Shown: positions 31,801 through 56,020 of the stretch, in pieces
Numbering within the stretch: the first letter of the stretch is position 1
Layout of the letters: every line of letters starts with the position of its first letter
NCBI GenBank assembly: GCA_905221615.1
Contig: CAJNDT010001282.1
Span: 1 to 64,000 of the forward strand
Reading direction: 5' to 3'
Length of the DNA stretch: 64,000 nucleotides
Origin: Symbiodinium sp. CCMP2592
Taxonomy: Eukaryota; Sar; Dinophyceae; Suessiales; Symbiodiniaceae
Translations under genes and position numbers: made by a program
Notes under the pieces: model-generated
Databases searched by the model: none
Seen by the model: the letters and a program-made list of their open reading frames with translations, nothing else
Told to the model about the DNA's origin: nothing

Positions 31801-32282
31801 CACAACTGAGGAGGCTCTCTGCAGTCCCACCTTTTTGATATAGAGGTCCATATACATGACTGCTCAATGCACAAACTCTTGTGGACATGCTCAAACAGAT
31901 TGCGGCAACTGTACAAAGCTTCAAGAGACATGCCCGAGTTTTCAGAAAGAATAATAAAACTGTTTGAAACCAGCATGTTTTGAAAACACATGTTGTGGCC
32001 ACCAGCTGGAGTACTTCTCCCCAGGTGCACCACTGCAGGTACGTTTTCACTGCACTCACAGAAGCGTCTTCGTTGGCTGGAGACTTCTGTGGTGCACTCC
32101 AGCCCCCTGCAAACTTTTAAGAAATGTTCACAATGGAAAGCTTCAAGCGAACAAGCATGTAAGTCAAGGTTTTTTGCATGTACCCCTGCAAACATCAAAA
32201 GAAAACTTCAGGAAGGAAAACATCAAGCAAGCGAGCATGTAAATCAAGGTTTGTCGCATGTACAGCAGAATAACACAAACAG
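31801..32282 (-). repeat. 3' terminal direct repeat (pLTR) of the retroelement
   Basis: It matches 42,389-42,870 base for base without gaps, except at 31,849 (C/A), 32,126 (G/C) and 32,212 (G/A). Its right third contains an internal tandem duplication of about 85 bp (CAAGCGAACAAGCATGTAAG and CAAGCAAGCGAGCATGTAAA, each followed by TCAAGGTTT and GCATGTAC). A minus-strand frame of about 132 codons crosses the repeat, but it has no recognisable motif and may be chance. Confidence 0.9.
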
Positions 32283-32437
32283 CCCCCAAAGGGGGGCAAA
32301 AGATACAATCACAGCTCATCACTTCCTGCAGCAATCGATGATCATAGCACTCACAGACGTTTCTGAGACCGCATGTCGAAGCACTGCATTTGTTCCCGTG
32401 TCGCACCATCAAGTCACGTCCGGATCACACTTGCACT
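32283..32437. other. Inner flank of the 3' repeat, with a GC hairpin at the boundary
   Basis: Exactly at the inner edge of the repeat is CCCCCAAAGGGGG (32,283-32,295), a five-pair G/C hairpin with a three-base loop, extended by outer G and C. The remainder is non-coding and would be the 3' untranslated part of the last ORF. Confidence 0.6.
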
Positions 32438-32929
32438 TTACAGTGGGTGAACAATGCGACGTACATTGAGATCATCAATGAAAGCAGATCCAATACGTAA
32501 TCGGTCTTCATTGGAATGATGAATCCATTCCACCGTTGCATGACGTACTTGGGCAAGACGCCAAAGCTGTTGAATATTGAAAAAGGTACGGTCGCCAACC
32601 AATCGAATAACGGAATAATACCATTCTTTGCATACGGACGCATACACCACAATATGGGGTAAAGCTGGAGCTTCACAAGTGATTGGCGTATATACACTGG
32701 GTCCTTGCACGAGGAACTCCCACACCTCAGCACGAAGATCCATACCCTCTGTTCTGCATTGCGTAACGAACTGTTCAAGATCCTGCATCGCATGGAATCC
32801 ATGTCTTCGTAGAGTAACATCCAGGGTCTCAAGCGGGTCTAATGGAGGAAAGGTGAAGAAGAAGATAAGATGGCGTCTCGTGCTGATGAAAGTCAGCACT
32901 TTCTCATTCAGAACAGTAAGCTCCCACAT
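32438..32929 (-). CDS. Element ORF, last accessory protein (163 aa, unknown)
   Basis: I do not recognise this protein. The first ATG is at 32,929 (MWELTVLNEKVLTFIST). The frame is also open to 32,998 without an ATG. It reads like a folded protein with alternating hydrophobic strands and helices (IVVYASVCKEWYYSVIRLVG, then FFNIQQLWRLAQVRHATVEW) and few low-complexity parts. It is the 3'-most ORF of the element on the minus strand, just before the terminal repeat. The neighbouring ubiquitin-like ORF is in a different frame. Confidence 0.5.
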   Translation of the reverse strand: MWELTVLNEKVLTFISTRRHLIFFFTFPPLDPLETLDVTLRRHGFHAMQDLEQFVTQCRTEGMDLRAEVWEFLVQGPSVYTPITCEAPALPHIVVYASVCKEWYYSVIRLVGDRTFFNIQQLWRLAQVRHATVEWIHHSNEDRLRIGSAFIDDLNVRRIVHPL

Positions 32930-33089
32930 GGCATCACAGGTTTCCCTACCCCACGCAGCAAGCACTACGAGAAAGCTCGAGCTTACATTCTGCTGCAATG
33001 TATGGACAGACTGTTGATTTCACGCGCACAGAAAGCTCGTAAGATCACAAGGCAAGACACTGCATTTGTTCCGGTGGACAGCAGACTTC

Positions 33090-33428
33090 TCAAGTCCACC
33101 ACACTGATTCGTGTGGCCATGTTCGTACAAAGTGAACAGGTTGGGCGGTATGCGGAAAAGCAGACACTCGGGAAATCGATGAGGTAAACGGCAAATGGCG
33201 GCCAAACTGCCGTAATTGAAAAGCGTTCAAACGAGGTGGTATCCCCGTGCGTTCTTCAAGCTCCTGGCACAACTTCTTCTTCAGGTCATCAATTGTAGAA
33301 TCTGCTGACATCGCAATCCAGAAACTCATCTCACGTCCGCCAGAGCATATATCTGGAGGTACAACAATTGGAATCCGGACCATCGGAGCGGGGGCCGGAA
33401 GGGCCGCCATACTTGCCTTGCGCTTCAT
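33090..33428 (-). CDS. Element ORF with ubiquitin-like domain (112 aa)
   Basis: Starts at ATG 33,428 (MKRKASMAALPAPAP). Residues about 33-108 follow the order of a ubiquitin fold: a first strand (MSFWIAMSAD), then STIDDLKKKLCQELEERTG, which parallels the ubiquitin helix (TIENVKAKIQDKEG), directly followed by IPPRLNAFQLRQFGRHLP, which parallels IPPDQQRLIFAGKQLED, and a last strand (PVHFVRTW). There is no C-terminal diglycine, so it would be a non-conjugating ubiquitin-like protein unless processed elsewhere. An AG sits directly before the ATG, which would suit a trans-splice acceptor. Ubiquitin-like cargo is unusual for a retroelement. It could mimic or recruit host ubiquitin machinery (inference). 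Confidence 0.55.
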   Translation of the reverse strand: MKRKASMAALPAPAPMVRIPIVVPPDICSGGREMSFWIAMSADSTIDDLKKKLCQELEERTGIPPRLNAFQLRQFGRHLPFTSSISRVSAFPHTAQPVHFVRTWPHESVWWT

Positions 33429-33551
33429 CTTGCAGATTGAGCCGTAAAAGACTTCGCAGCTTCATGATAACATGATGCACAACCGGAACAAACAGTACAA
33501 AAGATTGCAAAAAGGTCAGGGCATCAATTTTGTCGAGCACATACAGCAAGC

Positions 33552-34184
33552 TTACCGAATGTGACGAGATCCACCGGGTGAAACAGTTGTACTTGATCTT
33601 GATCGGGACCGTGAACGAGATCTCTCACGAACTTCCGATTCACTCATGGATCTGCTTCTTCGAGCAGCATTAGCACTCTGTTGTCGTCGACGAGGTAATG
33701 CATCACGTTGGTGAGGGTCCGTCAGGGAAATATTGGATCCATCAGTCGTTGTCGGAGCAGCATCACTAGGATCGGCTCCATGAGAGACATCCAAAGGAGG
33801 AGGAGACGGAGAAAACGGGAAACGAACAGGAGCAGAAAGAGACACAGGAGGGGGAGGAGGAAAAGCAGGAGGAGGAGGAGGAGGGGAAGAACCAAGAAGA
33901 GAAGAAACGGAAGGCAGAGAGGACGTCAGAGGAGCAGAATGGGAGGGCGTACCAAGATGTTGCGCGACAAGGGTATCAGCATCACTCTGAATCCGGCGGC
34001 GAAGATGGGAAAGAAGCACTTCTGTCTGCCGTCGATCTCCCAAAATCTGAAAAAGAGCCTTGACTTGTTCTCCGTCCAGACTTCTGATTATGTCAGTGCA
34101 GCCAATCCGGACATTGATAAGTTAGGAATGGAACTCAATAGCTTGGACCAACATCTGCGGTAACTCACATTCTTGCAACTGCAT
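33552..34184 (-). pseudogene. Element ORF, SR/proline-rich, one in-frame stop
   Basis: Reading from ATG 34,184 gives MQLQECELPQMLVQAIEFHS, then TAA at 34,124-34,122. The same frame then stays open to 33,552: LINVRIGCTDIIRSLDGEQV, KALFQILGDRRQTEVLLSHL, followed by a poly-proline/serine region and an arginine-serine tail (RSRSRSRS) near the C-terminus. The coding style continues across the TAA, so this is either a nonsense mutation or a readthrough stop. RS tails are typical of splicing-factor-like or nucleic-acid-associated proteins. An RNA-binding or packaging role is possible but unproven. Downstream of the TAA there is no ATG start, only near-cognate codons. Confidence 0.45.
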
Positions 34185-34235
34185 GCACACAAGCAAGCAA
34201 AACAGCGGCTGACAATATTCTGAACTCAAAGTAAC

Positions 34236-34703
34236 CTATACAACTCTGACCTTTGCAGCAGGAAACGCACATGCCGAAAACGTGACTTGATGAAGTTGGC
34301 ACCAACATGTCTCAATGCCCATAAGCTGGTATGTACAAGATGGCTTCAGTCGAGAACCATGACAAACTCGTAGTCTCATCAGAAATTTGATATGTCGCAG
34401 GGTCAGAGTACGACACTGCACAGAGATCCGCAAAAAAGATTCGCTGCATCGTGGAAGTAGATGTGTAAAAATGAATGTGGCCGAATCATTGGACAGTCCA
34501 TGATAATTGTGTGCTCGAAAACATCGTCCCATCCCATGTATCAACCATCGCTGCCACTGAGCGAACTGCTGAGTTCGACAATAACTGGGATTGTCACATC
34601 GCTGTGTGCTGACATGCACACTGCTGCACACCATAAGAAAAGAGAGAATGCAGTAGCGGGGCGCTTCTTCCTTCCAAACATCAAGAAACAGGCGGCTGGA
34701 CAT
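34236..34703 (-). CDS. Element ORF, 155 aa, unknown
   Basis: I do not recognise this frame. It begins with ATG at 34,703 (MSSRLFLDVWKEEAPRYC) and is cysteine- and arginine-rich throughout. It has no known domain. It fills the 630-base gap between the dioxygenase ORF and the SR-rich ORF. Its composition is less protein-like than its neighbours, so it may simply be an untranslated spacer. Confidence 0.3.
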   Translation of the reverse strand: MSSRLFLDVWKEEAPRYCILSFLMVCSSVHVSTQRCDNPSYCRTQQFAQWQRWLIHGMGRCFRAHNYHGLSNDSATFIFTHLLPRCSESFLRISVQCRTLTLRHIKFLMRLRVCHGSRLKPSCTYQLMGIETCWCQLHQVTFSACAFPAAKVRVV

Positions 34704-34815
34704 GTTGTATTGAGTAATTGATCACACCCTTTCGAGCACATGCATCAAGACAAAGTAAGAAGCAATGCATGACAACCGGTGCAAGCACATTAGGCGCACT
34801 CCTCTGAAGTCTTTT

Positions 34816-35898
34816 TTACGCATCCCATGACATGTCACTCGAAAATTCGTCAGCTGAAGCATCGACATCGGGATCGGAGAGAGACACAACGAAAGAACAA
34901 GAGGACCGGAGAGAAGAGGAACAAGACCAAGACCGGGAGAAGGAAGAGCAGGAAGGAAAGGAAGACGAAGGAGGAAGACGGAAAGAAACAGACGAAGAGG
35001 CAAGGGAGGCAACAGAGGAAGCGGGAGAGAGGGGAGGGAACAGCGGGGGACGAGCGGACGGGCGAGGGGGAGCACACAAAGCAGAAGAGGAAGAGGAGGA
35101 AGGAACCGCCGGGGGGGAGGAAGGACCGGACGAGAAGAAAGGCGACGCGGACAGAGGCAGAAGAGGGGAAGAGAAAGGAAAACCACAAGAGAAGGACGAG
35201 GGAAGGGAAGAGAGGACAGGCACACGGAGTCCAAGAAAACGAGCAAAAGGAAGACACGACGCATGAGGTGAAACTGGAACGTGTTGCTTGACACAAAAGA
35301 GCACCATCATAATGCGATTTCCGGCGAAAGGCATGGTGGCATGAATCACATTCCCATCGAAGCAGCATGGTTGTCTGACATCCAAGAGTCTGCCTTGTAG
35401 CTGATCACCATAGGACGCAACAGTGCAATTGGAATCTGCAACTGTATATGTAATGCGACCTCGATCGTCCATGACGAAGAATTCTCCTCCTGTCCAATCT
35501 CCGATGGCCCAGCCAATACTTGGGCCGTGGTTGTTTGAATCTCTGTGCGGAATAGTCCGAACATTGCGATTGATCTGAATACTTGTGACGGCCAAATCTG
35601 AGAATTGGGGAGGACAATGTAACATTCGAACGATCATTTTTGTGAGTCCAGGGAATCGGAATGTGTTCTTTGTAAATTGCAGCCTTCCTCGAGACTGCAC
35701 TCCGGAATACAAGCCAAGCAAGAGCTGATCTGCATGTATCTGGTCTGTAGATCGTACCTTCTTTCGACTGTAATTCATCCAAATCCGTCGGGGAATACCA
35801 TCAAGAACATAAGATAAGCGTGCAGCCAGGTCGTCCAATGACTGAAAATGACGATCATCCACATCTACATCGAATGGGCTACGATCTATGGTCGGCAT
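34816..35898 (-). CDS. Element ORF: 2OG-Fe(II) dioxygenase-like protein with low-complexity tail
   Basis: 360 codons from ATG 35,898 (MPTIDRSPFDVDVDDRHF). Residues about 60-205 form a double-stranded beta-helix oxygenase core. SIQINRNVRTIPHRDSNNHG gives the HxD iron site (His118, Asp120). Then come GPSIGWAIGDWTGGEFFVMD, and NVIHATMPFAGNRIMMVLF with the distal His186 and Arg195, which would bind 2-oxoglutarate. The last 150 residues are serine/proline/leucine-rich and probably disordered. Related oxygenases hydroxylate proteins, nucleic acids or small molecules. The TET/JBP branch oxidises thymine or methylcytosine and is known to travel with transposons in fungi. A candidate splice acceptor (TTTTGCTCAG) lies 12 bases before the ATG, as expected if each ORF is expressed by trans-splicing. 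The substrate is unknown. Confidence 0.65.
   Translation of the reverse strand: MPTIDRSPFDVDVDDRHFQSLDDLAARLSYVLDGIPRRIWMNYSRKKVRSTDQIHADQLLLGLYSGVQSRGRLQFTKNTFRFPGLTKMIVRMLHCPPQFSDLAVTSIQINRNVRTIPHRDSNNHGPSIGWAIGDWTGGEFFVMDDRGRITYTVADSNCTVASYGDQLQGRLLDVRQPCCFDGNVIHATMPFAGNRIMMVLFCVKQHVPVSPHASCLPFARFLGLRVPVLSSLPSSFSCGFPFSSPLLPLSASPFFSSGPSSPPAVPSSSSSSALCAPPRPSARPPLFPPLSPASSVASLASSSVSFRLPPSSSFPSCSSFSRSWSCSSSLRSSCSFVVSLSDPDVDASADEFSSDMSWDA
34860..35210. repeat. 350-bp polypurine/polypyrimidine tract
   Basis: The plus strand is almost entirely A and G with blocks such as GGAGAGAAGAGGAACAAGA and GAGGAAGAGGAGG. It encodes the low-complexity tail of the dioxygenase ORF on the minus strand and keeps other frames open as an artefact. 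Such mirror-like purine tracts can form triplex structures. A smaller GGAGGA-rich tract lies at 33,795-33,920. Confidence 0.7.
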
Positions 35899-36132
35899 GC
35901 TATCATTTGACTGAGCAAAAGGTCAGTTACATGCAGGGCGAATCAAGGAAAACTGTAATGCACTGGCAACATGAGACAGCAGACCTTAGCATCGGTGTTA
36001 TTTGGTTTTCAAGCATGCGGTCCACGGCGGAGTGCAACACTCAAAATGTGGGCAAGCGATTGATCTCATCCAATATCAAAGCAGGAAGAAAGCAAGGACA
36101 TAGGCATAAACCAATGAGTTGACAACATTCAC
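35899..36132. other. Spacer between accessory ORFs of the element
   Basis: No coding frame is supported. The 3' end on the minus strand carries the pyrimidine-rich TTTTGCTCAG that may serve as splice acceptor for the dioxygenase ORF. Confidence 0.4.
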
Positions 36133-37803
36133 TTATGCATCCCGTGCCCACGATGTCCAGAAGACAGCAGTTCCTGCTAGGACACTCCGACTTGAGCGAA
36201 ACATCCAACGACCATCCTGGCCATGAATCAAATCGCAGAGATGTCCGAAGGTCTGATCGGATGCGTTAACGGCCTGGAAGTGGGCGTGTTGCCGCACAAA
36301 GGTCCATCCTAGCGCCGCACATGTGCGAGAATCAACCTGCTTTCCCCCAAAGCGTCGGGCACCGGACATAGAATTTCGCATGGCAGTCAAATGCTCCGGC
36401 TGAGAGCCGTCAAGCTTTGGAAGCCGAATAGCAGGTTTCGGCCAAGACATTCGGCCGTAAAAGCCTGTGGATGGGACCCATGTGCGATCCGCCCTGTCGA
36501 AATATGATGGCCGGACGACCTCCTGATTTATGATCGACGCCAGATCCTGGGGAACTGTGTTATGAACAAAGGGCACTGCAAAACAGGTAGCAGGGTCATC
36601 CGGAAGCCTCGTTGTCGATATGAGAAAAACTCCATGCGGAGCTTCATGCGTGCCGTCATCTGCGAGTCCAGTGTCTGGGTCCGTGCTACTCGGGAACAGC
36701 CAGTAAGATCCACGACCGGCCTGAAGATCTTCTCGAACGAACGGACGAAGACGAGGCACCGATGACAGAATGCGGGCAAGACTTTGAATCTGCTTTTTGG
36801 CGTCCGGGCCCATGGCAAAATAATCCTGAGCATCCGACCAAGAATAGTTGGCATGATGGTCGGCTCCCGCCAAAATGGCGGCTATCCATCTTTCTTGTAG
36901 ATCATAGGATCCAGTCGGGAGAACTGGAACAACAATTTCCGCGGCACTTTTGATACGGTTGGCATCCTTCATGATAGCGGTCCTGTAATGTAACAACAAT
37001 CGTTCAACTTCGTACCATTGTTTCTTCTTTTCTCTATCTGTAGCGGCGGGGTCGAAGTTCCAAACATTCATCCCAGCAACAGTCCGGATAGTGAAGAACT
37101 GAGGCCACATCGAGTGCTGAACATCAGGTCTGTCCAACTTCGTAGGCTCCAGAAACTGGACCTAGATCGGTGGCCCTGAGGAGGGCTCAACACACACCCA
37201 TTCGTCTGAGGGTGCGGGAATGTCCGGGCCGTCCGGAACGGCGTATTTGTCGGAACTTGCACCAACAATAGCGAGCTGAGCAGAAGATGAAGGCTTATCC
37301 TCAATCGGCATACGTTCATCATCAGCAAGTTGGCGACGCTTTCTCGGAAGAGGCGGACACGGCTTCAATACTGGGCTCCTTGAACGAGTGTCCCGAGTGT
37401 CCCGATTGCCAAACAACCGAACAGAGGTCAAGCTTTCGATGACCCTATTTGCCATACCCTCGTCATGAATCTGAATAGACTGAGCCGTAGATCCACTACC
37501 CTCAGTGAGAGTCAGAAAGGGCGAGGGAGGAGGAGCGCGGGGAATCGCGGAGTCCACATGTGCTTGAGGGAGCGAAGGAGTCGATGAAGAAGAAGGAGGG
37601 GCAGGAGGGGCAGGAAGAGCTCAACGGCCTCCAGAAGCGCTTCCAGCAGGCCGTGCCCATTCTGGAAGTGTGTCAGGCGGTGCAAGGGCCCGGTTCACCT
37701 CTTGGGCGACTCTTCGTCGAATATACATTTCCACAGAGCCGCTGACAGGGCCAGGAGGGCCCGAGGACTTTGGAAACAAATTGAGACTGTCCTCCGCGGA
37801 CAT
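36133..37803 (-). pseudogene. Element long ORF (557 codons) with two in-frame stops; possible ADP-ribosyltransferase-like end
   Basis: One frame runs from ATG 37,803 (MSAEDSLNLFPKSSGPPGP) to the stop at 36,133, interrupted by TGA at 37,623-37,621 and TAG at 37,164-37,162. It has coding character on both sides of each. The N-terminal 210 codons are proline/serine-rich with a basic motif (PLPRKRRQL) that could be a nuclear signal. The C-terminal about 330 residues look globular. They include FAVPFVHNTVPQDLASIINQ followed by EVVRPSYFDRADRTW and STGFYGRMS, which resembles the H-x-T...I...G/V-RPS start of ADP-ribosyltransferase or RNA 2'-phosphotransferase folds. That similarity is weak and is my inference. 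The stops may be mutations (CGA to TGA, CAG to TAG) or readthrough sites. There are near-cognate starts after each stop, but no ATG close by. Confidence 0.5.
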
Positions 37804-37944
37804 CGTCAAGTGCACAGGATGCTACAGAATGCGAAAAACACAACAAAAGATCTCGAGCAGAAAATACATAACAAGCGAACAGCTCAATGACACATGGACT
37901 GAGACACTTTGCAGACAAAGAAAGCACCGAGTGCAGAGGCTTAT
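37804..37944. other. Spacer between RT and the next ORF
   Basis: 141 bases with stops in the RT frame (TAG near 37,820). No ORF is supported. Confidence 0.5.
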
Positions 37945-39246
37945 TTACTCAGCAGTCAAGCGAGCACGAAGATTGTTAAACTGTAGCCTGACACGTCTCA
38001 GAATGGGGTACATCATTGACGGATCAAATCCCTGCCTCACATAGGACTGCAAAAGCTGATCAGGATCGACTTCACGTTGCTCCAGCGGCCAAGATGCACG
38101 TGCAATCAAGTGGGCTCTGGATCGGAAGCTGCTTAACAGCGTCCGTGTGTTGGCCGCCGAATTGGAATGCAGAAACTTCCAGGTCTCCGTAGGTTGAACA
38201 TACTGCACACGTAGCTGTTGTGTATCCACGTGGAAACCCAGGAAAAGGTCCCCATCCTCATACTCAAGTACAATGGGCGGTATGTACACATCTTGACGCA
38301 GGAAAGATTGCACCGCAACATAGCTGGCATAACGATCCAGAATCAAACTCAGTCGATTGTCCACATATCTGACAACAAGGCCGAAAGTTGGCAAGCGAGA
38401 GGACTCCAACAGACATTTGCCAAAGTACATGTGCTCATATAAGCTCACCACGGCATGGCACGCTGCCGGAGAAAAATGGCTTCCCATCGGTGCACCTCGG
38501 AGTTGTTGAATGGCCTGCTGACCTACCACAAATAGATTGAACTGGAACGACACTTGTACTGCCTCCATGAATAGGTCCATCGGGACGGCAACTCGTTTGT
38601 CGTGCAACAGACAATGTCGACCGCGAATAGTTTTCATAACAGACAAGATGTTTTCCAAGTCCACGGTCACGACAACTCCTTTCAGGGCATGATCAAGATC
38701 GGCATCCGAGACGTCGTAAAAACGACAAAGTAATATACGGAAGGTGGTCATGAACCGTTCCCTCGGGATGCTCACGAAAAAACCTGACAAGTCTTGATTG
38801 TGCATGGCAATTTGCTGTCTGTCTTCCTCACGGCTGTGGCATCGCTTCTCAAAGAAGGCATGTATATTCTGCCAAAGCAAGATTGCATCGTTGTAGGATC
38901 GGGTGTGGGGACACACCTCAGCAACAAGCATCTCCGTGACTTTCGCCATCACAACCAAGAACTGACGAGCGGGGTGAGAGGCAAAACTAACGATTGGCCT
39001 TCCCCCTTTCCATTCTTTCTTGAACTTGGGGAGAATATAAGCCCATGACACACGGGCACCGCGAGAGCCAAAGCGGAAAGGGAATGCTTCAAGAATCCGA
39101 GGTGGTACTGCATGTTCCATCTGAGCCATGATCGCTGAGGGGTTTAGCGACAGTGGCTTGAAAACTGATTCAGCAGTGAAAGTGTTCTGAAGCATCATCC
39201 AATACTTCACAGGACAAAAAACATGTGCATGAGTGCATGAGAGCCT
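37945..39246 (-). CDS. Reverse transcriptase of Penelope-like type
   Basis: The frame opens at 39,246, overlaps the GIY-YIG frame in -1, and has no ATG until 39,198 (residue 5, counting GTG at 39,210 as residue 1). RT motifs on that numbering: YILPKFKKEWKGGRPIVS (about 58-75), motif A QDLSGFFVSIP (Asp140), motif B RGAPMGSHFSP (238-248), motif C RYVDN (281-285), and FLGFHVDT. A Penelope-type tail follows: VQPTETWKFLHSNS (338-351) and RSRAHLIARASW. The wording PTxTxxxLHxNS followed by a basic RA helix is characteristic of Penelope-like RTs. The catalytic box is YVDN rather than YxDD; the first aspartate is kept and the second is Asn. It is probably made as a -1 frameshift fusion with the endonuclease ORF. 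It ends TAA at 37,945. Confidence 0.8.
   Translation of the reverse strand, partial: RLSCTHAHVFCPVKYWMMLQNTFTAESVFKPLSLNPSAIMAQMEHAVPPRILEAFPFRFGSRGARVSWAYILPKFKKEWKGGRPIVSFASHPARQFLVVMAKVTEMLVAEVCPHTRSYNDAILLWQNIHAFFEKRCHSREEDRQQIAMHNQDLSGFFVSIPRERFMTTFRILLCRFYDVSDADLDHALKGVVVTVDLENILSVMKTIRGRHCLLHDKRVAVPMDLFMEAVQVSFQFNLFVVGQQAIQQLRGAPMGSHFSPAACHAVVSLYEHMYFGKCLLESSRLPTFGLVVRYVDNRLSLILDRYASYVAVQSFLRQDVYIPPIVLEYEDGDLFLGFHVDTQQLRVQYVQPTETWKFLHSNSAANTRTLLSSFRSRAHLIARASWPLEQREVDPDQLLQSYVRQGFDPSMMYPILRRVRLQFNNLRARLTAE
39207..39246 (-). promoter_or_regulatory. Candidate -1 ribosomal frameshift window
   Basis: The endonuclease frame (ATG CAC ATG TTT TTT GTC CTG TGA) and the RT frame overlap by 40 bases. 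A run of six T (39,221-39,216) followed by G sits 9 bases before the endonuclease stop. Slipping back one base on the second TTT puts ribosomes into the RT frame. It is not a perfect X-XXY-YYZ site, because the preceding base is G, so efficiency is uncertain. Confidence 0.5.
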
Positions 39247-40805
39247 TCATGATCCCGGACATGCCACACCAATCCTTTGGTCAGTTCTCTCAACTCACGA
39301 ACCTGATCAACCGACCAATGGGTCCCGACATGCTGTAAATGTAGCTTCCATGCCTTCTCCCACACACATCGAATATCAATGGTCGGATAATGTACCAAGC
39401 CATGATGATCAATCCACTGTCTCACGTCGTCAAGAAACATCTTCCAGTGATCCGTGGCGGTCATGAATACCGGATTCGAGCAACTCGACTGAGCCAACTG
39501 AGTCAGTTCATGCGGCAACGACAGCAACGTGGCGGAAGATGCAATGTGACCCTGAACCACTGTCAGGTGTGGATGATGTCGAAGAAGCTCAGAGCAACAA
39601 CATGTGACACCGGCCTGCTGTGGGTCTTCACGCGGGTCCCACAACTGCAAGATGCGTTTGTGCGAAAACAGAACCTCCCTGATTTTGGGATGACTCTTTG
39701 CAACAAGCGAGGTCGCTGGAATATGGTATGGTAGCAGTCGATCCGACGATACATCCAGAATATCGCCCAACATGCCACGAACCAAGCGCTTGAAGCCTGC
39801 CTCCGGTAATAAGAACGGAGTTGACAAGGGACGACATGTGGTCGGGCACCTCAACTGTCGAAATTGCAGCACCGCGTTCAGTCTGGACCTACAGATCGTC
39901 TCGTAGAAAGGGTCACCCAGATGAGTGGCCATCCGAAATAGTCTGTAAAGAAAATCCGAGTCGACTCTGTTGCTGCGCAAATACTTTTGGGCAAGAAAGG
40001 ACTTTAAACCGTCAGAAGCAGCTAAATCGAACAGAATCTGATAGCTGTAGACGATGTTCTGAACAATGTGTGTTGAGCGAAAGACTGATGGAGTCAGTCC
40101 AGTGAGCTGGACGTTCTGACGTCGAAAACGTCGGAAAATTCTCCACGAAGTCACAAATCTGCGAACACATCTGACAGGGTCGGAATTGGCAATCTGCGCA
40201 TGTTTAGCTCTCACCAGAGAACGAACCCATGGAGCATTCAGGCGTGGCTGCAGCAAGTTGATGAACGTCTGCTCAATTGTATGTAGACAGTCGGCCTGTG
40301 GGACATGCATAATCAACAAAGGAATGGCCATGTGATAATTCCGCCATCGATAATGCCAGACCAACGAGAGTTCACCACATACAGACTTGCCCGCACGGAT
40401 CTGTTGGTACTTCCCCCATCTAGTACGCTCACGCTCGCCCAACGTTTGAGATGAAGATCCGACATACATGAATTTCTGTAACTCAGGCTGGAGAAACATG
40501 CGGCAATAGATCACCGACTGAGTCTGGAAGAATTTCCAGGTGTAGCTGGAACATTTTAAACGAAGCTGAGAGGTCAATGGCGACTGTACAAGCCCGAACT
40601 CACAAGCAAGCAAAAGAAGTTTTCCACGAACCCAAATAACAATGTCCATCCATTGTCGTCCGAACATGGTGGGTGTCTCGTAGACACTCTGGAAAAATAG
40701 ATGAGCATTCCGGAGCAAGTCCACTTCACTCCGGTGCTGTTTCCACCATCCTTGTGCTGGATTTCTACTGCGATATAGTTCTCGGGCATCCAATATGGCC
40801 TGTAG
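39207..40805 (-). CDS. GIY-YIG endonuclease ORF, in frame behind a UGA stop
   Basis: This frame starts directly after the TGA that ends the gag-position ORF and has no ATG near its beginning (the first in-frame starts are near-cognate, e.g. TTG at 40,793). That implies readthrough. Counting TTG as residue 1, the GIY-YIG signature is VIY (94-96) and KFMYVGSSSQTLGER (107-121, with catalytic Arg121). The conserved Glu174 lies in CLHTIEQTFINLLQPRLN, which ends in the family's P-x-L-N motif. The following 340 residues contain a cysteine/histidine cluster (TCCCSELLRHHPH) and probably include the N-terminal part of the RT (fingers). Its role is to nick target DNA to prime reverse transcription. In most Penelope-like elements GIY-YIG follows the RT. 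Here it precedes it, as in the permuted Naiad/Chlamys group. It ends TGA at 39,207 inside the RT overlap. Confidence 0.7.
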   Translation of the reverse strand, partial: LQAILDARELYRSRNPAQGWWKQHRSEVDLLRNAHLFFQSVYETPTMFGRQWMDIVIWVRGKLLLLACEFGLVQSPLTSQLRLKCSSYTWKFFQTQSVIYCRMFLQPELQKFMYVGSSSQTLGERERTRWGKYQQIRAGKSVCGELSLVWHYRWRNYHMAIPLLIMHVPQADCLHTIEQTFINLLQPRLNAPWVRSLVRAKHAQIANSDPVRCVRRFVTSWRIFRRFRRQNVQLTGLTPSVFRSTHIVQNIVYSYQILFDLAASDGLKSFLAQKYLRSNRVDSDFLYRLFRMATHLGDPFYETICRSRLNAVLQFRQLRCPTTCRPLSTPFLLPEAGFKRLVRGMLGDILDVSSDRLLPYHIPATSLVAKSHPKIREVLFSHKRILQLWDPREDPQQAGVTCCCSELLRHHPHLTVVQGHIASSATLLSLPHELTQLAQSSCSNPVFMTATDHWKMFLDDVRQWIDHHGLVHYPTIDIRCVWEKAWKLHLQHVGTHWSVDQVRELRELTKGLVWHVRDHEGSHALMHMFFVL

Positions 40806-40808
40806 TCA
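40704..40808 (-). promoter_or_regulatory. Candidate UGA-CUA stop-codon readthrough site with downstream stem-loop
   Basis: The stop is TGA at 40,808-40,806 followed by CTA CAG, the well-known leaky UGA-CUA context. The frame behind it stays open for 533 codons. About 67 bases downstream lies an inverted repeat (AGCA-CCGGAG, 13-base loop, CTCCGG-AA-TGCT; 40,738-40,704), which could form a ten-pair stem with a two-base bulge. Known readthrough elements often use a 3' stem-loop. Confidence 0.6.
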
Positions 40809-42011
40809 AGCCACAAGAATTGTTCCGACAGCTAGGATCCGCAGCAACGAATTTGCCTTGAGCTTGGGAATATCACGGATGGGCACGCCCCAGTTGGCAA
40901 CAACCTGATCCAATTCGGCCTGCTCGTTGGAAGGAAGGTCCGCATGCCATCGTTGTACAGGAGCCGTCCATGTTTGGAGCTTCTGGCGATTGTGTTTGCT
41001 CAAGGTCAATCCCTCAATCCATGTCGACACTTCCTTGTCCGACTTGCAAGTTTTCCAACTGCGTGTCAAGAAGTGGCGTTTGGACGGGTCCGTGATGACT
41101 GTCTTAACAACTTGTCCAACATGCGAGGATGTACCATACTCAAGCTGAGGAGCGGAGCTCGAACTTCCTGGACTACGACCCTGGGTCTCGACCTCACCGT
41201 TCTCAATGCTCAACGGTTCTGCCTGGCTTCCCGATGGTTTGCCTTGCTGGAAGGCCTGCAGGAGATTACTTTTGGGCTCAACGGTCTGACCACGAAGAAG
41301 ACGGGTTGCACCATCAGGAACTTTTTGAGCGGAGGGTGCTGACTCTGGCACACGTCCCGGGGAGCTTTCCTCAATCGGCAACCCTTTCTGATCTGCGACA
41401 ACCTGGTTGGAAGTGCGGGAGGGGGAGGCATTCTCGAAGTTCGCAAGTTGTTGTTGAAGAATCTGAATCTGATTCGCCATGGCTGCCTTCTCCGTGTCGA
41501 CCGAGGCCTGAGGATACAGACCTAACATGTAGTCGACAACCTTCTGCGCCAACAAATGTGTGGCATGCGACTTGGAATCCGAGCCACTGCTCTTTGAAGT
41601 GGGATCACTGGTACCAAGCACTATAGAAGCAAGCTCATCCAAGTCGACTTCTTCATCTCGCAACTTTCCGAACAGTGCATGACAGAATACAATTTCACCG
41701 ATCGATTTGAAACCTGCGAAGAAAGTCGGCTTGCCTTCTGCAATATGGCGAACCCAATACGAATTCCAACCCTGATACAGCAGCGAGTGGAGCGGTATCA
41801 TGTGCGTTGGGCATCCGTCAATCTGCTTTCGAACTGTCCAATCAGTCTTCTTGACCCAACGAGCCAAGTTCAAGCCTGCAATACAGCGGGAATCCAAATA
41901 GTTCGGATTCTGGGAGAACTCGGCGGGTAGCATCGGTCCGAAAACTCGAGGTGAGTTGGCAGCAGGTGGGGAAGGAAGTCCGGGAATGCGAGGGGTCGGC
42001 GAAATGTTCAT
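40806..42011 (-). CDS. Gag-position ORF of the retroelement (401 aa)
   Basis: ATG at 42,011 (MNISPTPRIPGLPSPPAAN), stop TGA at 40,806. I do not recognise a known capsid fold. Residues about 35-130 look globular (IAGLNLARWVKKTDWTVRKQ, YQGWNSYWVRHIAEG, FAGFKSIGEIVFCHALFGKL). A short predicted coiled coil follows at about 176-195 (EKAAMANQIQILQQQLANFE). Then comes a disordered serine/proline/glutamine region and a C-terminal helical domain (STWIEGLTLSKHNRQKLQTW). No CCHC zinc knuckle is seen. By position and by the leaky stop that links it to the endonuclease/RT, it resembles a gag protein that may bind element RNA or form particles. That role is inferred. Confidence 0.6.
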   Translation of the reverse strand: MNISPTPRIPGLPSPPAANSPRVFGPMLPAEFSQNPNYLDSRCIAGLNLARWVKKTDWTVRKQIDGCPTHMIPLHSLLYQGWNSYWVRHIAEGKPTFFAGFKSIGEIVFCHALFGKLRDEEVDLDELASIVLGTSDPTSKSSGSDSKSHATHLLAQKVVDYMLGLYPQASVDTEKAAMANQIQILQQQLANFENASPSRTSNQVVADQKGLPIEESSPGRVPESAPSAQKVPDGATRLLRGQTVEPKSNLLQAFQQGKPSGSQAEPLSIENGEVETQGRSPGSSSSAPQLEYGTSSHVGQVVKTVITDPSKRHFLTRSWKTCKSDKEVSTWIEGLTLSKHNRQKLQTWTAPVQRWHADLPSNEQAELDQVVANWGVPIRDIPKLKANSLLRILAVGTILVA

Positions 42012-42133
42012 GATCTGAGCGACACGTGGGTTAGGCTAAGATTTTGTGGCTGAAGCACTGGGGTAGGTGGGACCGAAGCAGGGAGGGAGGAGCTCCAGTA
42101 GGGATTGCGACGGGGGGAGCGCTCACGATCCAT
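42008..42133 (-). CDS. Upstream 41-aa ORF overlapping the gag-position ORF (ATGA)
   Basis: ATG at 42,133 gives MDRERSPRRNPYWSSSLPAS and ends in TGA at 42,010-42,008. That stop overlaps the ATG of the next ORF (42,011-42,009) in the sequence ATGA. Such overlaps couple termination to re-initiation. The peptide is arginine/serine/proline-rich. It could be a small protein or a regulatory upstream ORF. Confidence 0.4.
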   Translation of the reverse strand: MDRERSPRRNPYWSSSLPASVPPTPVLQPQNLSLTHVSLRS

Positions 42134-42388
42134 GGCAGGGTGCTGAAACAACACTTTAACGCGAGTCTCAAGCCAGAAAATGTCTAAACATGAATACATG
42201 TGCAATCGTCAGTGATCTCCGGACGCCACTCCACTCTGATTTCCGGAAGTGTGATTTCCGCTCAGTGATGTCCACTTGAACATGTTGTGAGACGGAAATG
42301 ATCTCCAAAACTGCTAACACAAGCACCCCGGTGGGCCGGCAACTTCGCCGAATAACGACAAGGCCCTCATGAGGGAGCTCTTGCCGAA
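42134..42388. other. 5' leader of the retroelement between repeat and first ORF
   Basis: It contains a perfect palindrome CCCTCATGAGGG (42,364-42,375) 13 bases from the terminal repeat. It also has three copies of a TGATTTCCG-like motif (about 42,217, 42,237, 42,249). No hammerhead core (CUGAUGA...GAAA) was found, although Penelope-like elements often carry one near their repeats. Confidence 0.5.
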
Positions 42389-42870
42389 CACAACTGAGGA
42401 GGCTCTCTGCAGTCCCACCTTTTTGATATAGAGGTCAATATACATGACTGCTCAATGCACAAACTCTTGTGGACATGCTCAAACAGATTGCGGCAACTGT
42501 ACAAAGCTTCAAGAGACATGCCCGAGTTTTCAGAAAGAATAATAAAACTGTTTGAAACCAGCATGTTTTGAAAACACATGTTGTGGCCACCAGCTGGAGT
42601 ACTTCTCCCCAGGTGCACCACTGCAGGTACGTTTTCACTGCACTCACAGAAGCGTCTTCGTTGGCTGGAGACTTCTGTGGTGCACTCCAGCCCCCTGCAA
42701 ACTTTTAAGAAATCTTCACAATGGAAAGCTTCAAGCGAACAAGCATGTAAGTCAAGGTTTTTTGCATGTACCCCTGCAAACATCAAAAGAAAACTTCAGA
42801 AAGGAAAACATCAAGCAAGCGAGCATGTAAATCAAGGTTTGTCGCATGTACAGCAGAATAACACAAACAG
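42389..42870 (-). repeat. 5' terminal direct repeat (pLTR) of the retroelement
   Basis: This is the 482-bp partner of 31,801-32,282, same orientation, same length, three substitutions, and the same internal duplication. It should contain the promoter of the element, but I cannot point to a specific promoter motif. Confidence 0.9.
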
Positions 42871-49640: not shown

Positions 49641-50884
49641 TCAATCGAACGAACCTTTCACACATGAGGAGCTTCAAGGAGCAACGGGCCGCCAAATCCC
49701 ACGCAGCACAGCCGATGGACCGCAGCCCCTCCAGAACCCAACGACCGAGAGACAGCGCAAGACCGCGAAAGACCAAAAAAGCAACAAAACAACATAATGA
49801 CAAGCCTCAAAACCTCACTTCCAAATTGAGGCTTAGCCCGAACCGGCCTAGCCGAAACATAAAACCTCACACAATTGGTAGAGGTGATCGCCAAACAGAC
49901 CTTTAATCACAGAAAGGGTCAGAGGGGCAAAAAACCCCCAAATGTCCACCAGGAGCATGGGCAGCACCCCATCCTACCTCAAACTATGCGTCGTCAAGCC
50001 TTGAGCCCCAGCCGCAAATCCTCGATCCTCAACCCGATAGATGAAGATTGCTTTTAAACGCGACAGCAGGAAAAGAATGACGAGGCGAGACCCCTGAAAG
50101 ATGCGCTACAAAACGTAATCCTGAAGAAGTCGTCGCAGGCAGACACCCCACTATACCTCACTGAGTGCTGGGTTGCGGAACAGAAACCTGAAGAAGAGTG
50201 AGGCGCAGCAACAACCGCAAACACGTAAATTTTTCCTTCAACCATCTTCAACGGCAAACCTCAGAAACTTTGCGAGCCATGGTTTTTCCCCAGAACGAAA
50301 CACACACGGCAAAACGTAAAAGCAAAAGAAATGATCCAAAAAAGATCCCAACCTGGAAACCAGAAACCCCAAAAAAGAAGTGATGGCCAGAAGCCACAAA
50401 CTCTAAATTATTAAACTCTGAAAGCAAAAGTCCTGAACCAAAGAACGACTGGAGGCTAAATCAATTTAAAAACTACACAACGAAACGGCACGCAATGAGT
50501 AGAAGCCCCACATTCCAACACGTGGCATGGACGGCGAAAGATTAACCCAGCAAACCCTAAAAGATAGAGGATGCAATGACCAACTCAAACATTCAACCAC
50601 TTAGCGGTGGCAAGCACCACCTCAAAACAACAACCGAGCTCCTCAAAGACCGGTCACACCAAATCACGAAACCAGCAAAAAATAGAAAGAAGTTACACCA
50701 CGAGCACCAGTTCCATCAGCCACGAGCTTCAAGGAAAACTGGGAAACATGAAACCGTCGAACCGATGAGCAAACTTTACGCACTGCAAACAAGGACGAAA
50801 ACGGCAGCAAACGCATCAAACCCTCACTTCCACATTGAGTCTTAGCCCTGACTGGCCTAGCCGAAACCAAAAGCCTCAGACAAA
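49640..50884. repeat. Macrosatellite, first unit (left of the insertion)
   Basis: The unit is anchored by GTGATCGCCAAACAGACC at 49,884 and contains the same 1-kb order of blocks as the later copies: CTATGCGTCGTCAAGCCTTG, GCAGGCAGACACCCCACTAT, AACGACTGGAGGCTAAATCA, ACCACTTAGCGGTGGCAAGC. Sequence related to the preceding unit's end starts at about 49,640. The strand is A- and C-rich with many AAACCCTAAA-like pieces. Confidence 0.85.
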
Positions 50885-51476
50885 ACCCTCTCTCCTTTGT
50901 ACTAACAGGAAGCAGCAGACGGTCGAGACTCACTTTTCTCGCCTCGACTTGCACGACTGTGTTGGCGTTCTGTCTGCGAACGAACGGGTTGGAGCAACAG
51001 GACCCTTTTCAACGGCGCGCTCGAACAAACCACTCACTGCGCGCGTTCCCCACCTTTGCGCGGTGGGAAGGCGAACAGGTTGTCAACAACTGTCTGGTAG
51101 TCCCACTCTGTTGGAGCGTGCTGTAGGCGAAGAAGATCGGACCACGCTGTCGAACGAGGGCTCCAGCCGCTGACACTGGAGCTGGTCGGCCTCCGAATAG
51201 TCTCCTCGAGACACCTTGTCGGACAAGTTGGCCTGACTGGTCACGCGCTGAAAACTTACGAACAAGCCTCGCTGAGCAGCCCACAACCGCAACCAAAAGA
51301 ACCCAACAACCAACAAAGAGCAGGGTTCTTCGAAGTTCCTTCGCAAGGATTCTGGCTTCCAATGGAAAAAACCACAAAGAAAACGCTTCTTCTGTAGCGA
51401 AACCGTGTGACACTTGCCAGCTTTGGAAGCGAATTCTGCCAAAACCGACAGATGAGGCGCAATTACACAAAGTATC

Positions 51477-52451
51477 CTACGTAAAAGCCAGGCCACAATC
51501 AGCAAACTCAAGGGAGATACAATTCGCGTCCTTTGAGCGATGTTCCCTTTCGTGGCTGTATTGTCCACGAAGCAGATCAAACAATCGAACTGGTCCCGAG
51601 CCACCACCTCTATCAGAGATCAGCTGTGCGACTGCTTCTAACCGATAGATGTAGTCTCTGGAAGAACAACACGGCTGCAGACTGGGACCTGTGCTCGAAA
51701 ACACCACCTGGCGCCTGACTGAAGCAGATTGGGCCCCCCACCCGTTGGTGGCCTGCTTGAGCTGCTGCAACGCCGAACTGGTGTCCAGCCAACGGTTGGC
51801 GCACTTCCTTCCTCCATGCACAGTGAGGAAGGCATCGGTATAGATGCGTCCGATTCGCTTCTGCACTGACTGGGAGATGCTGGGGAGGAAACTAGGCTTA
51901 AGAGCTGGCAGCAACTCCTTCACGAGTGAAAACCGACGGTGTAGTTCAACCTCAGCTGACGAACTGGACCTGGCCAGGTCGCCCAAAAACCTCAGCTTCC
52001 CCGCAAGTCTGGCGGCCAGAGGGCCCGAACAAGTACTCTTTTGTAAACACTCGGACAGGACTGTTACGAGCCTCGCCACGCGCTCAGGGCCCGGGCTGGC
52101 CCAAACGCTTTCTGGCACCAAAGCCCAAAGGACGCCAACAAGGGCGTGCGACCAGGCCGGTCTCTTTTCCTTAGGCTCGGAAGCCCAAGCCCGTATGAAA
52201 CGTTTTGAAAGCAGAAAATCCGGAAAGGGCAAGCTCGGAATCCTCGGGCGGAATGAGCTGACGGGACGATCAACAAGGAGACTGCCAGGAACGAAAGAAC
52301 GTTGGCTACCCTTAAGTAGGACCACACGCTGCCACTGCTTCCGAACGGTAGGCTGTCGACAGGGAGCACTACTCCGCCTTCCGACGGATCCCGGGCGGGA
52401 AGAGATAGGTATGCCCCTTCGTGGTTCACTGCGCTGAGGAGGTAGACTCAA
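51477..52451 (-). pseudogene. Retroelement fragment: RT thumb/connection plus RNase H-like part
   Basis: The 324-codon frame has no ATG start and no RT catalytic box, so it is a 5'-truncated piece. The middle reads LVGVLWALVPESVWASPGPE, RVARLVTVLSECLQ, then LAARLAGKLRFLGDLARSSS. This is the A-x-L-A-GKL-x-FL pattern found after the palm domain in DIRS-like or dinoflagellate-type RTs. It is followed by RIGRIYTDAFLTVHGG and NGWGAQSASVRRQVVFSS, resembling the RNase H strand with catalytic Asp (YTDA), and YIYRLEAVAQLI, resembling the helix with catalytic Glu. The integrity of the RNase H is doubtful. It is probably a dead copy nested in the macrosatellite. Confidence 0.5.
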
Positions 52452-52751
52452 CGTAACGGGCTGACTGGACGCAGCTAGCTAGCGTCGGCCGAAGCGTACG
52501 CAACGTAGGCTGGGGTGTCACACACCGACACTGCGCTATTGCGCTGGCTCCTCGTCCAGTCGTCGGCGCGCCGCACCTTGCCGGACTGGACAACTGGGAA
52601 AGCGCGAGAAGCGCAGGAGGAAGTGTGGTTGTCCGCTGCCGTAAAGCTTTTCCGAAGCCTTTTGACCCTGCCCTTCGCTCGCTCTCCCACCGCCGTCGGA
52701 ATGTCCGAGCCAACTGCGGTCACACGGCCCCGAACGTCAGTAGCCTTCGCC

Positions 52752-52817
52752 CTTGCTGTTCCGCAAGGGATATGACGGTTTGCTCTTGCTGTTCCGCAAG
52801 GGATATGACGGTTTGCT
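52752..52817. repeat. Perfect tandem duplication of a 33-mer containing an inverted repeat
   Basis: CTTGCTGTTCCGCAAGGGAT plus 13 more bases occurs twice head to tail. Each copy contains CCTTGC-TGTTCC-GCAAGG, a six-pair hairpin. Confidence 0.85.
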
Positions 52818-53320
52818 TTTCCTGGGGTGCAGGTCGAGCCCCGGGTGCTCTCGGCAAGGCAACAGCTTGCTCGTCGAACAGGGCCGAAACCAAAGCCTTG
52901 CTGTTGTACCAGGCATCAGCGCCTGTAGTGGGAGCGTCGTCATATCATAGGCATTGTAGCCCTCCGCAACGGACTGGGCGAACAGGGACGCCAGCCTTGC
53001 TCTCGCCTTCTGGCGCAGATGCTCCCTCCGTGGCGCCCACCAAGACCCGCAAAGCGGTGCTGATCACGGCCACGGACGGGGTGCGCCGCGTCTCTGCCGT
53101 TGCCGCGTCATCGGCACGCCCTTTGGTCGGTCTGCGACCGGGTGCGGAGCCGTTCCTTGGGCTGAGCCGCTCCAGCGCTCTCTGCAGCGGACGGGCTGCC
53201 ACCTTTGCTGCTTCGGCCATGGCTGTACGTGGAGCTAACTTGAAAAAGCTTGTTGCCACACCGGCAAAACTCGAAAGGTAACATCGTCAGACGGGCTTTG
53301 TCACTAGATGCACACGTGCA

Positions 53321-54375
53321 TTACCACACAACTGATAGAAGTGATCGCCAGACAGAACTTTAATCACAGAAAGGGTCAGAAGGGCAGCAAACCCGCAAAT
53401 GTCCACCAGGAGCATGGGCAGCACCCCATCATACCTCAAACTATGCGTCGTCAAGCCTTGAGCCCCAGCCGCAAATCCTCGATCCTCAACCCGGTAAATG
53501 AAGATTGCTTTTAAACGCGACAGCAGGAAAAGACTAACGAGGCGAGACCCTTGAAGGATGCGCTACAAAACGTAATCCTGAAGAAGTCGTCGCAGGCAGA
53601 CACCCCACTATACCTCACTGAGTGCTGGGTTGCGGAACAGAAACCTGAAGAAGAGTGAGGCGCGGCAACAGCCGCAAACACGTAAACCCTTCCTTCAACC
53701 ATCTTCAACCACAAACCTCAGAAACTTCACGCTCCATCGCTTTACCCCAGAACGAGACACACACACACGGCAAAACGTAAAAGCAAAAGAAATGATCCAA
53801 AAAAAGGTCCCAACCTGGAAACCTGACCTGAACCCTCACAAAAGAAGTGATGGACAGAAGCCACAAACCCTAAATTACTAAACTCTGAAAGCAAAAGTCC
53901 TGAACCAAAGAACGACTGGAGGCTAAATCAATTTAAAAACTACACAACGAAACGGCACGCAATGAGTAGAAGCCCCAAGTTCCAAAACTTGGCATGGAGG
54001 GCGAAAGATTAACCCAGCAAACCCTAAAAGATAGAGGATGCAATGACCAACTCAAACATTCAACCACTTAGCGGTGGCAAGCACCACCTCAAAACAACAA
54101 CCGAACTCCTCAAAGACCGATCACACCAAATCACCAAACCAGCAAGAAATAGAAAGAAGTTACACTATAAGCACCAGTTCCATCAGGCATGAGCTTCAAG
54201 GATAACTGGGAAAACTTACACCGTAGAACCGATGGGCAAAATTTACGCACTGCAAACAAGGACGATAGCGCAAGACCGCGAAAGAGCGAACGGCAGCAAA
54301 CCAACAAAATGACAAGCATCAAAACCTCACTTCCAAATTGAGGCTTAGCCCTAACCGGCCAAACCGAAACATAGA
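53321..54375. repeat. Macrosatellite, second unit
   Basis: Anchor GTGATCGCC at 53,341. The distance to the next anchor is 1,055 bases. High identity with units 1, 3 and 4 across most of its length. Small minus-strand frames that recur in each unit (about 67 codons, MVEGRVYVFAAVAAPHSSSG) share this conservation because the DNA is repeated, not because of proven coding. Confidence 0.9.
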
Positions 54376-55405: not shown

Positions 55406-56020
55406 GAGACATCTGATAGTAAGTAGTGATCGCCAGACAGACCGTAAATTACAGAGAGGGTCAAGTCTCCAAATGTCCACCAGGAGCATGGGCAGCACCC
55501 TATCATACCTCAAACTATGCGTCGTCAAGCCTTGAGCCCCAGCCGCAAATCCTCGATCCTCAACCCGATAGATGAAGAATGCTTTTAAACGCGACAGCAG
55601 GAAAAGAATGACGAGGCGAGACCCTTGAAGGATGCGCAACCAAACGTAATCCTGAAGAAGTCGTCGCAGGCAGACACCCCACTATACCTCACTGAGTGCT
55701 GGGTTGCGGAACAGAAACCTGAAGAAGAGTGAGGCGCGGCAACAGCCGCAAACACGTAAACCCTTCCTTCAACCATCTTCAACCGCAAACCTCAGAAACT
55801 TCACGAGCCATCGCTTTACCCCAGAACGAGACACACACACACGGCAAAACGTAAAAGCAAAAGAAATGATCCAAAAAAAGGTCCCAACCTGGAAACCTGA
55901 CCTGAACCCTCACAAAAGAAGTGATGGACAGAAGCCACAAACCCTAAACTCTCAGAGCAAAAAAGTCCTGAACCAAAGAACGACTGAAGGCTAAATCAAT
56001 TTAAAACTACACACCGACAC
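55406..56020. repeat. Macrosatellite, fourth unit (partial)
   Basis: Anchor GTGATCGCC at 55,426. It follows the unit closely to about 56,020, then drifts. Confidence 0.85.

What the first reader, a model, noticed from the sequence alone, without database searches (positions are those of the whole stretch)
31801..42870. A multi-gene Penelope-like retroelement with permuted endonuclease and host-like cargo
Seen: an 11.07-kb unit between 482-bp direct repeats (three mismatches) carrying at least eight same-strand ORFs, including a GIY-YIG endonuclease upstream of a Penelope-type RT, a 2OG-Fe(II) oxygenase and a ubiquitin-like protein. Known: Penelope-like elements usually encode one RT-GIY-YIG protein and are a few kilobases long. 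An N-terminal GIY-YIG is described for the Naiad/Chlamys branch. Inference: this is an expanded, virus-like lineage with a gag-position protein and nucleic-acid- or protein-modifying cargo.
Basis: partly seen in the sequence, partly recalled or inferred. Interest (0 to 1): 0.93.

Follow-up and report, generated by a model that had tools for sequence, protein, structure and literature searches.

The report
Multi-gene dinoflagellate retroelement with TET-like oxygenase
In an alga of the coral-symbiont (Symbiodinium-like) type, an abundant and recently mobile 11-kb jumping element with a telomerase-like copying enzyme also carries an enzyme related to those that chemically mark DNA, which suggests that the parasite may edit the marks its host uses.

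Summary
Window 31801-42870 is one decayed copy of a repeat family: 482-bp direct terminal repeats enclose nine minus-strand frames. In the 1.1-Gb source genome (Symbiodinium-like dinoflagellate) I counted 49 near-complete RT copies; 45 of 49 have the oxygenase gene about 2 kb downstream; 11 repeat pairs read are 97.9-100% identical. Other copies show that the GIY-YIG and RT frames are one 949-aa protein. New: (1) the RT model is closest to telomerase and, with its N-terminal GIY-YIG, Penelope-like; (2) a UGA, usually UGA-CUA, separates the gag-like frame from GIY-YIG-RT in all 25 copies read and in 12 of 13 sister-family copies, implying readthrough; (3) among Pfam families the oxygenase resembles TET/JBP DNA dioxygenases only, below cut-off, supported by a profile match. 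A 2025 study of fungal TET/JBP transposons saw no retrotransposon with one. Against: no target-site duplication in 11 copies, no hammerhead ribozyme, no tree with named Penelope clades. 'Ubiquitin-like' and 'virus-like' are not established.

The parts
42389..42870 (-). 5' terminal direct repeat (pseudo-LTR); by comparison with other copies its sense start is the TGTTTGTGTTATTCTGC at 42869
   Evidence: ends from 10 other copies
42356..42386 (-). palindrome/hairpin (CCCTCATGAGGG core) directly after the 5' repeat; the same sequence, with small changes, follows the 5' repeat in the 10 other copies read
40806..42011 (-). ORF1, 401 aa, gag-position protein; homologous to the gag-position protein of a sister family
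   Evidence: (E=2e-20 over 110 aa); dN/dS 0.092-0.105
40803..40808 (-). UGA-CUA junction: in-frame stop between ORF1 and ORF2, proposed readthrough site
39207..40805 (-). ORF2, GIY-YIG endonuclease part of the GIY-YIG-RT protein; domain about 40149-40526; no Met before residue 47
37945..39246 (-). ORF3, reverse transcriptase, motif C YVDN; out of frame with ORF2 in this copy
36133..37620 (-). ORF4+ORF5, one frame with a TAG at 37162-37164 in this copy; conserved C-terminal region of unknown fold with an HNT..IRPS stretch
   Evidence: dN/dS 0.141 and 0.064
34816..35898 (-). ORF6, 360 aa, TET/JBP-like 2OG-Fe(II) oxygenase domain (about 35221-35898) with Ser/Pro-rich tail
   Evidence: dN/dS 0.140-0.198
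33552..34121 (-). ORF7, 189-aa open frame, Pro/Arg-Ser-rich; dN/dS 0.230-0.327
33090..33461 (-). ORF8, 123-aa open frame; ubiquitin-like only by a weak 22-residue match; dN/dS 0.171-0.216
32438..33019 (-). ORF9, 193-aa open frame, unknown; dN/dS 0.155-0.218
32283..32296 (-). G/C hairpin directly before the 3' repeat; G/C-rich stretch at the same place in the 10 other copies read
31801..32282 (-). 3' terminal direct repeat (pseudo-LTR)

Best explanation
A decayed copy of an abundant, recently mobile dinoflagellate retroelement of Penelope-like type. Proposed working, with status. Shown in sequence: unit bounded by direct repeats of about 340-494 bp, in one case (C686) two units head to tail sharing a repeat; gag-like ORF1, then an in-frame UGA, then one GIY-YIG-RT protein; downstream a conserved ORF4/5 protein, a TET/JBP-like dioxygenase and three further conserved frames, all under purifying selection. 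Inferred: transcription starts in the 5' repeat and runs through the unit; some ribosomes read through the UGA (mostly UGA-CUA), giving a Gag-endonuclease-RT fusion at a set ratio; GIY-YIG nicks the target and the telomerase-like RT copies the RNA at the nick; tandem or repeat-ended templates regenerate the repeats; downstream genes are released by the spliced-leader trans-splicing that dinoflagellates use; the oxygenase oxidises a pyrimidine methyl group (5-methylcytosine, or thymine to 5-hydroxymethyluracil) in element DNA and so weakens silencing.
Confidence: 0.7

Rival explanations
1. The core is a Penelope-like retroelement, but ORF6 is not a nucleic-acid base oxygenase: it is a 2OG enzyme acting on protein (for example a hydroxylase of Gag or of a host protein).
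For: Scores against Tet_JBP stay below the curated cut-off (16.4 against 34.9 bits); 17 of 19 members, the window's own among them, have no Tet_JBP hit; the fold was not confirmed.
Against: No other 2OG Pfam family is hit; significant profile match to a TET/JBP-scoring domain.
Confidence: 0.25
2. The element is not Penelope-like but an LTR or DIRS type retroelement with a captured GIY-YIG domain; the terminal repeats are true LTRs.
For: Long near-identical direct repeats starting with TG; gag-UGA-pol layout as in some retroviruses (recalled); the fixed order in 45 of 49 copies resembles a provirus.
Against: No integrase, protease, RNase H or tyrosine recombinase family hit in the nine window frames; no target-site duplication; RT closest to telomerase; GIY-YIG and RT in one protein.
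Confidence: 0.1
3. ORF2 is made not by UGA readthrough but by re-initiation or by spliced-leader trans-splicing at the CTACAG that follows the UGA; the shared frame is inherited without function.
For: CUACAG could serve as an AG acceptor; trans-splicing is the rule in dinoflagellates (recalled); an in-frame Met exists at residue 47 of the window ORF2, before the GIY-YIG domain.
Against: The UGA and the shared frame are kept in both families although their RTs are about 27% identical; in the sister-family copy C162 no Met precedes the GIY-YIG domain.
Confidence: 0.3
4. The accessory frames downstream of the RT are passengers: captured host sequence or a nested element carried along by chance.
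For: The sister-family copy C162 lacks ORF6-9 in the stretch read; PLEs are known to capture host DNA between pLTRs (PMC3846280).
Against: Same order and spacing of RT and ORF6 in 45 of 49 copies, purifying selection on every frame, and in public data three pairs of relatives on contigs of equal length, hence probably the same contig: RT with ORF6 (41556), ORF5 with ORF6 (20605 and 59977).
Confidence: 0.07

Closest known systems
Naiad/Chlamys-type Penelope-like elements (recalled; the defining paper was not held)
   Same: GIY-YIG N-terminal to the RT in one protein; telomerase-like RT
   Different: 11 kb, many genes, gag-UGA-pol layout, oxygenase cargo; motif C reads YVDN; not placed in a tree here
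Canonical Penelope elements of bdelloid rotifers (PMC3846280, passages read)
   Same: GIY-YIG plus RT; direct pseudo-LTRs; partial tandem copies; some insertions without target-site duplication; palindromes near pLTR ends
   Different: a single RT-plus-endonuclease frame (endonuclease C-terminal: recalled); pLTRs of about 180-220 bp; inverted pLTRs and 8-10 bp duplications in several cases
Terminons (PMC6431247, passages read)
   Same: giant, multi-gene PLE-derived elements with enzyme cargo
   Different: endonuclease-deficient RT, telomere-attached, hammerhead ribozymes, GDSL/Rep/exonuclease cargo; here the endonuclease is fused to the RT and no ribozyme was found
SymbioLINE-Dnmt and SymbioDIRS-Dnmt3 (PMC5890265, passages read)
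   Same: Symbiodinium retrotransposons carrying a DNA-modifying enzyme
   Different: LINE or DIRS, methyltransferase cargo; here a Penelope-like element with an oxygenase
TET/JBP-bearing DNA transposons of fungi (PMC12730594, passages read)
   Same: transposon-borne TET/JBP dioxygenase
   Different: DDE transposons and Helitrons; [quoted passage not shown]

Membership tests
Penelope-like elements | RT of the telomerase/PLE branch | tested here: met
Penelope-like elements | GIY-YIG endonuclease in the RT protein | tested here: met
   949-951-aa frames in 24 of 49 copies; catalytic pattern conserved in 3 diverged proteins; Pfam support weak (best E 0.068, 2 of 3).
Penelope-like elements | pseudo-LTRs, often with partial tandem copies | tested here: met
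Penelope-like elements | short target-site duplications (usual, not universal: PMC3846280 describes insertions without) | tested here: not met
   0 of 11 copies; longest words shared by 60-bp flanks are 5-8 bases, control median 5, maximum 9
Penelope-like elements | hammerhead ribozyme in pLTR (found in many PLEs, not defining) | tested here: not met
Penelope-like elements, Naiad/Chlamys branch | RT groups with that branch in a tree | not tested
   no reference sequences could be obtained
Penelope-like elements, Naiad/Chlamys branch | GIY-YIG N-terminal to RT | tested here: met
Terminons | endonuclease-deficient RT protein, 3' hammerhead, telomere-attached | tested here: not met
   endonuclease present in the RT protein, no hammerhead; telomere location not tested
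LTR or DIRS retroelements | integrase/protease/RNase H or tyrosine recombinase | tested here: not met
   no such Pfam family at E<=1 in nine window frames
TET/JBP dioxygenases | HxD...H...R facial triad and 2OG arginine in a TET/JBP-type context | tested here: met
   among 19 aligned members P0042 lacks the first His, and P0045 and P0046 lack the distal part
TET/JBP dioxygenases | score over the Pfam PF12851 cut-off | tested here: not met
   best 16.4 against 34.9 bits
TET/JBP dioxygenases | oxidation of a base in DNA | not testable with these tools
   needs biochemistry
Ubiquitin family (ORF8) | beta-grasp domain similarity | tested here: inconclusive
   PF00240 E 0.27-0.32 over 22 aa; homologue without hit

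The most novel reading that the evidence does not exclude
Retroelement-borne TET/JBP-like oxygenases, carried both by this Penelope-like family and by abundant long frames (about 1283 aa, next to a zinc-knuckle-like frame) of what looks like another retroelement type in the same genome, are writers of the 5-hydroxymethyluracil that marks dinoflagellate DNA and appears enriched in its repeats: the base modification of a whole host genome would be made, at least in part, by its parasites.
Probability: 0.1. Interest if true: 0.96.

Novelty: new variant of a known kind. Interest (0 to 1): 0.8.

Why it matters
It joins three things that I found described only apart: a telomerase-related retroelement with a proviral layout (gag, UGA, pol, terminal repeats, several genes), stop-codon readthrough as its likely way to set the Gag:RT ratio, and a TET/JBP-like base oxygenase in a retrotransposon. 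[quoted passage not shown] 5-hydroxymethyluracil about two-fold enriched in multimapping reads in Breviolum, PMC11071213; abstract and passages read). A mobile element that brings its own oxygenase makes the question of who writes or erases these marks directly testable.

Tried and rejected
Structure prediction of ORF6 was too poor to use; its fold search returned nothing meaningful. Profiles of ORF6 and of GIY-YIG found no related solved structure. ORF4/5: no Pfam or PDB hit; the HNT..IRPS stretch looks like an ADP-ribosyltransferase/KptA motif to me (recalled), but the comparison with a similar stretch upstream in C162 was not significant by profile (E=0.056; tblastn E=0.007), so I do not claim it. 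Assembly duplication as the source of the repeats: rejected, since pairs recur on 12 other contigs, C686 with its triplet included. RNA-family search of repeats: only hits far below the families' own cut-offs. Viral collection: no relative. A search for canonical PLEs through the GIY-YIG family in the same genome never got an answer; a genome search with ORF5 likewise. A solved PLE was not among the listed structure rows; that shows nothing.

Rows dropped: of 100 RT matches (901 first-look candidates, 99 scored) I counted 49 at 72% identity or more covering at least 399 of 421 residues; the other 51 were shorter fragments or the 27-29% sister family. The 4 RT copies without a near ORF6 are C1187, C136 (both have one farther off on the same contig), C3336 and C349. 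One RT fragment, on C151, was listed with a 1338-aa frame, which looked like a lost UGA; its junction was fetched and keeps TGA-CTA at the expected place. Of 21 junctions fetched, 17 had the TGA at the expected place (16 CTA, 1 CTC); in 4 (C1187, C2223, C3857, C5090) it lay shifted by small indels and was read by eye in the printed stretch. Of 12 sister-family junctions one (C5007) was not located in the stretch fetched; C162 adds one located junction. Two of the 18 dN/dS pairs (C201 ORF1, C686 ORF8) held one internal stop codon, which was left out; C201 ORF5, broken in two frames, was not compared; the C686 ORF6 comparison covers 134 codons. In the flank test the 3' flank of C3724 was set wrongly; one search uses the right one.
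Full report
Setting. The window lies on contig C1282 (67,456 bp) of a genome of 1,098,105,373 bp in 5,383 contigs. Of the 28 protein relatives of the RT, the four that carry names are all Symbiodinium; the host is therefore taken to be a dinoflagellate of that kind.

Observation. Two 482-bp direct repeats (31801-32282, 42389-42870) differ at 3 positions. Between them nine minus-strand frames can be listed. None reaches a Pfam cut-off.

The family. Searching the genome with the RT gave 100 matches; 49 cover at least 399 of 421 residues at 72% identity or more, and 24 of these 49 lie in an open frame of 949-951 aa, the length of ORF2 plus ORF3; in C201 and both C686 units the two parts were seen in one frame. 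The window copy is thus a frameshifted member; relatives from other records also run through this junction. ORF4 and ORF5 are likewise one frame with an in-frame TAG here, continuous in P0047. Searching with ORF6 gave 115 matches; in 45 of 49 RT copies it lies on the same strand 1,904-2,303 bp downstream, most often 2,042 bp. C201 and the first unit of the C686 tandem carry ORF1 to ORF9 in the same order; the second C686 unit was fetched only as far as the RT and has ORF6 at the expected distance. The repeat itself recurs in pairs about 9.5-11.1 kb apart round RT copies on C4936, C5284, C3846, C1169, C1580, C1924, C5090, C4479, C151, C5243 and C3724, and three times on C686 as two head-to-tail units sharing the middle repeat. 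Ten pairs read at base level plus the window give aligned repeat lengths of 338-494 bp and identities of 97.9-100%, five of them 100%: mobility was recent. The repeats start TGTTTGTGTTAT (one 3' copy, C4479, differs by a base) and end near CA(G/A)TTGTG; a palindrome follows the 5' repeat and a G/C-rich stretch precedes the 3' repeat. No target-site duplication: the longest words shared by the 60-bp flanks are 5-8 bases in the 11 true pairs, against a median of 5 and a maximum of 9 in mismatched pairs.

Coding. Codon comparison of the window with C201 (ORF1-3, 6-9) and C686 (ORF1-9 of the first unit, ORF1-2 of the second) gives dN/dS between 0.057 (ORF2) and 0.327 (ORF7) in 18 comparisons covering all nine frames. 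The accessory frames are therefore selected proteins, not filler.

Gag-UGA-pol. ORF1 and ORF2 are in one frame, separated by a single TGA. The sequence GGCT-TGA-CTA-CAG is identical in the window, C201 and both C686 units. In 21 more copies the TGA is present in all; in 17 it lies at the expected distance from the RT, followed by CTA in 16 and CTC in one (C136); in four it is shifted by small indels. No frame among the 49 exceeds 951 aa. A sister family (RT about 27% identical) has the same layout in the copy read, C162: gag-like 608 aa, TGA-CTC, 925-aa GIY-YIG-RT in the same frame, with no Met before or in the GIY-YIG domain; TGA-CTC is found in 11 of 12 further junctions, the twelfth not located. 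The two gag-position proteins are homologous (34% over 110 aa, E=2e-20). UGA-CUA as a leaky context is recalled knowledge. This makes readthrough the simplest way to make the polymerase; it is inferred, not shown.

Oxygenase. Eighteen relatives share the stretch INRN-RTIPHRDSNN ... G-D ... FDGN-IHAT-PF-G-R with few changes (one member lacks the first His, two lack the distal part). Among all Pfam families only Tet_JBP appears from the 2OG class, in 2 of 19 members (E=0.0056 and 0.032), below the cut-off and not for the window's own copy. In the same genome Tet_JBP finds 93 weak matches at E<=1 (best E=2.2e-4, none over the cut-off), many in repeated frames of about 850, 1,283 or 3,100 aa. One of these (L063), with a zinc-knuckle-like stretch in the frame before it, scores Tet_JBP E=3.6e-6. 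The ORF6 profile matches the profile of seven such domains with probability 96.3%, E=1.4e-9, over 143 columns, aligning PHRDSNN with AHRDTHN and HATMPFAGNR with HATLPWSGRR; the one control, against the ORF5 profile, gives 0.1%. I conclude that ORF6 belongs to the TET/JBP side of the 2OG oxygenases; substrate unknown. Its next relatives in the genome (36% identity, on C5319, C5002, C2001) were not examined, so its origin, host or other element, is open.

Literature. [quoted passage not shown] PMC5890265 (passages) reports DNMT-bearing LINE and DIRS elements in Symbiodinium. PMC11071213 (passages) reports 5-hydroxymethyluracil about two-fold enriched in multimapping reads in Breviolum and reads this as preference for repeats. 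Searches for a dinoflagellate Penelope-like or TET/JBP-bearing retroelement listed no paper that names one (open-licence library only; listings seen, most listed papers not opened).

Verdict. A real, multi-copy, recently mobile family. As a Penelope-like element it meets the RT, endonuclease and terminal-repeat criteria, lacks the usual target-site duplication and the frequent ribozyme, and has not been placed in a tree; I therefore call it Penelope-like rather than a member of a named clade.

Noticed in passing
L063-L070 (G000 contigs C485, C113, C1308, C1371, C1636, C5258, C1291, C1301): Tet_JBP matches in frames of 826-1285 aa. In L063 (Tet_JBP E=3.6e-6) and L068 the domain is followed by a PPCGTASRARE stretch that looks like a cytosine-methyltransferase motif IV (recalled; no Pfam DNMT hit for L063) and preceded, in the same frame and across one TGA, by a zinc-knuckle-like frame; perhaps the SymbioLINE-Dnmt type, which would then carry both a TET/JBP-like and a DNMT-like domain.
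   Followed up: partly
window 49747-56236: Several copies of a 0.9-1.7-kb direct repeat, about 90-95% identical over the long pieces, in a stretch of strongly skewed base composition (AT skew up to 0.44 at 54-56 kb).
   Followed up: no
L071 (G000:C162:38000-47900): Sister family with the same gag-UGA-(GIY-YIG-RT) core but no ORF6-9 in the stretch read; a frame upstream of it carries a GHGTS..VRPSS stretch resembling the HNT..IRPS stretch of ORF5 (E=0.007 by tblastn, 0.056 by profile).
   Followed up: partly
RT motif C, window about 38350-38370 and relatives: Second catalytic Asp is Asn (RYVDNR) in at least 90% of the 22 aligned sequences.
   Followed up: partly
G000:C532:123162-125582 and C5012:245809-250127: Repeat pairs only about 2.2 and 3.8 kb apart: deletion derivatives or non-autonomous copies (C5012 keeps an ORF6 fragment).
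   Followed up: no
G000:C1247:2857-6295: Two RT copies in inverted orientation with identical scores, possibly an assembly palindrome.
   Followed up: no
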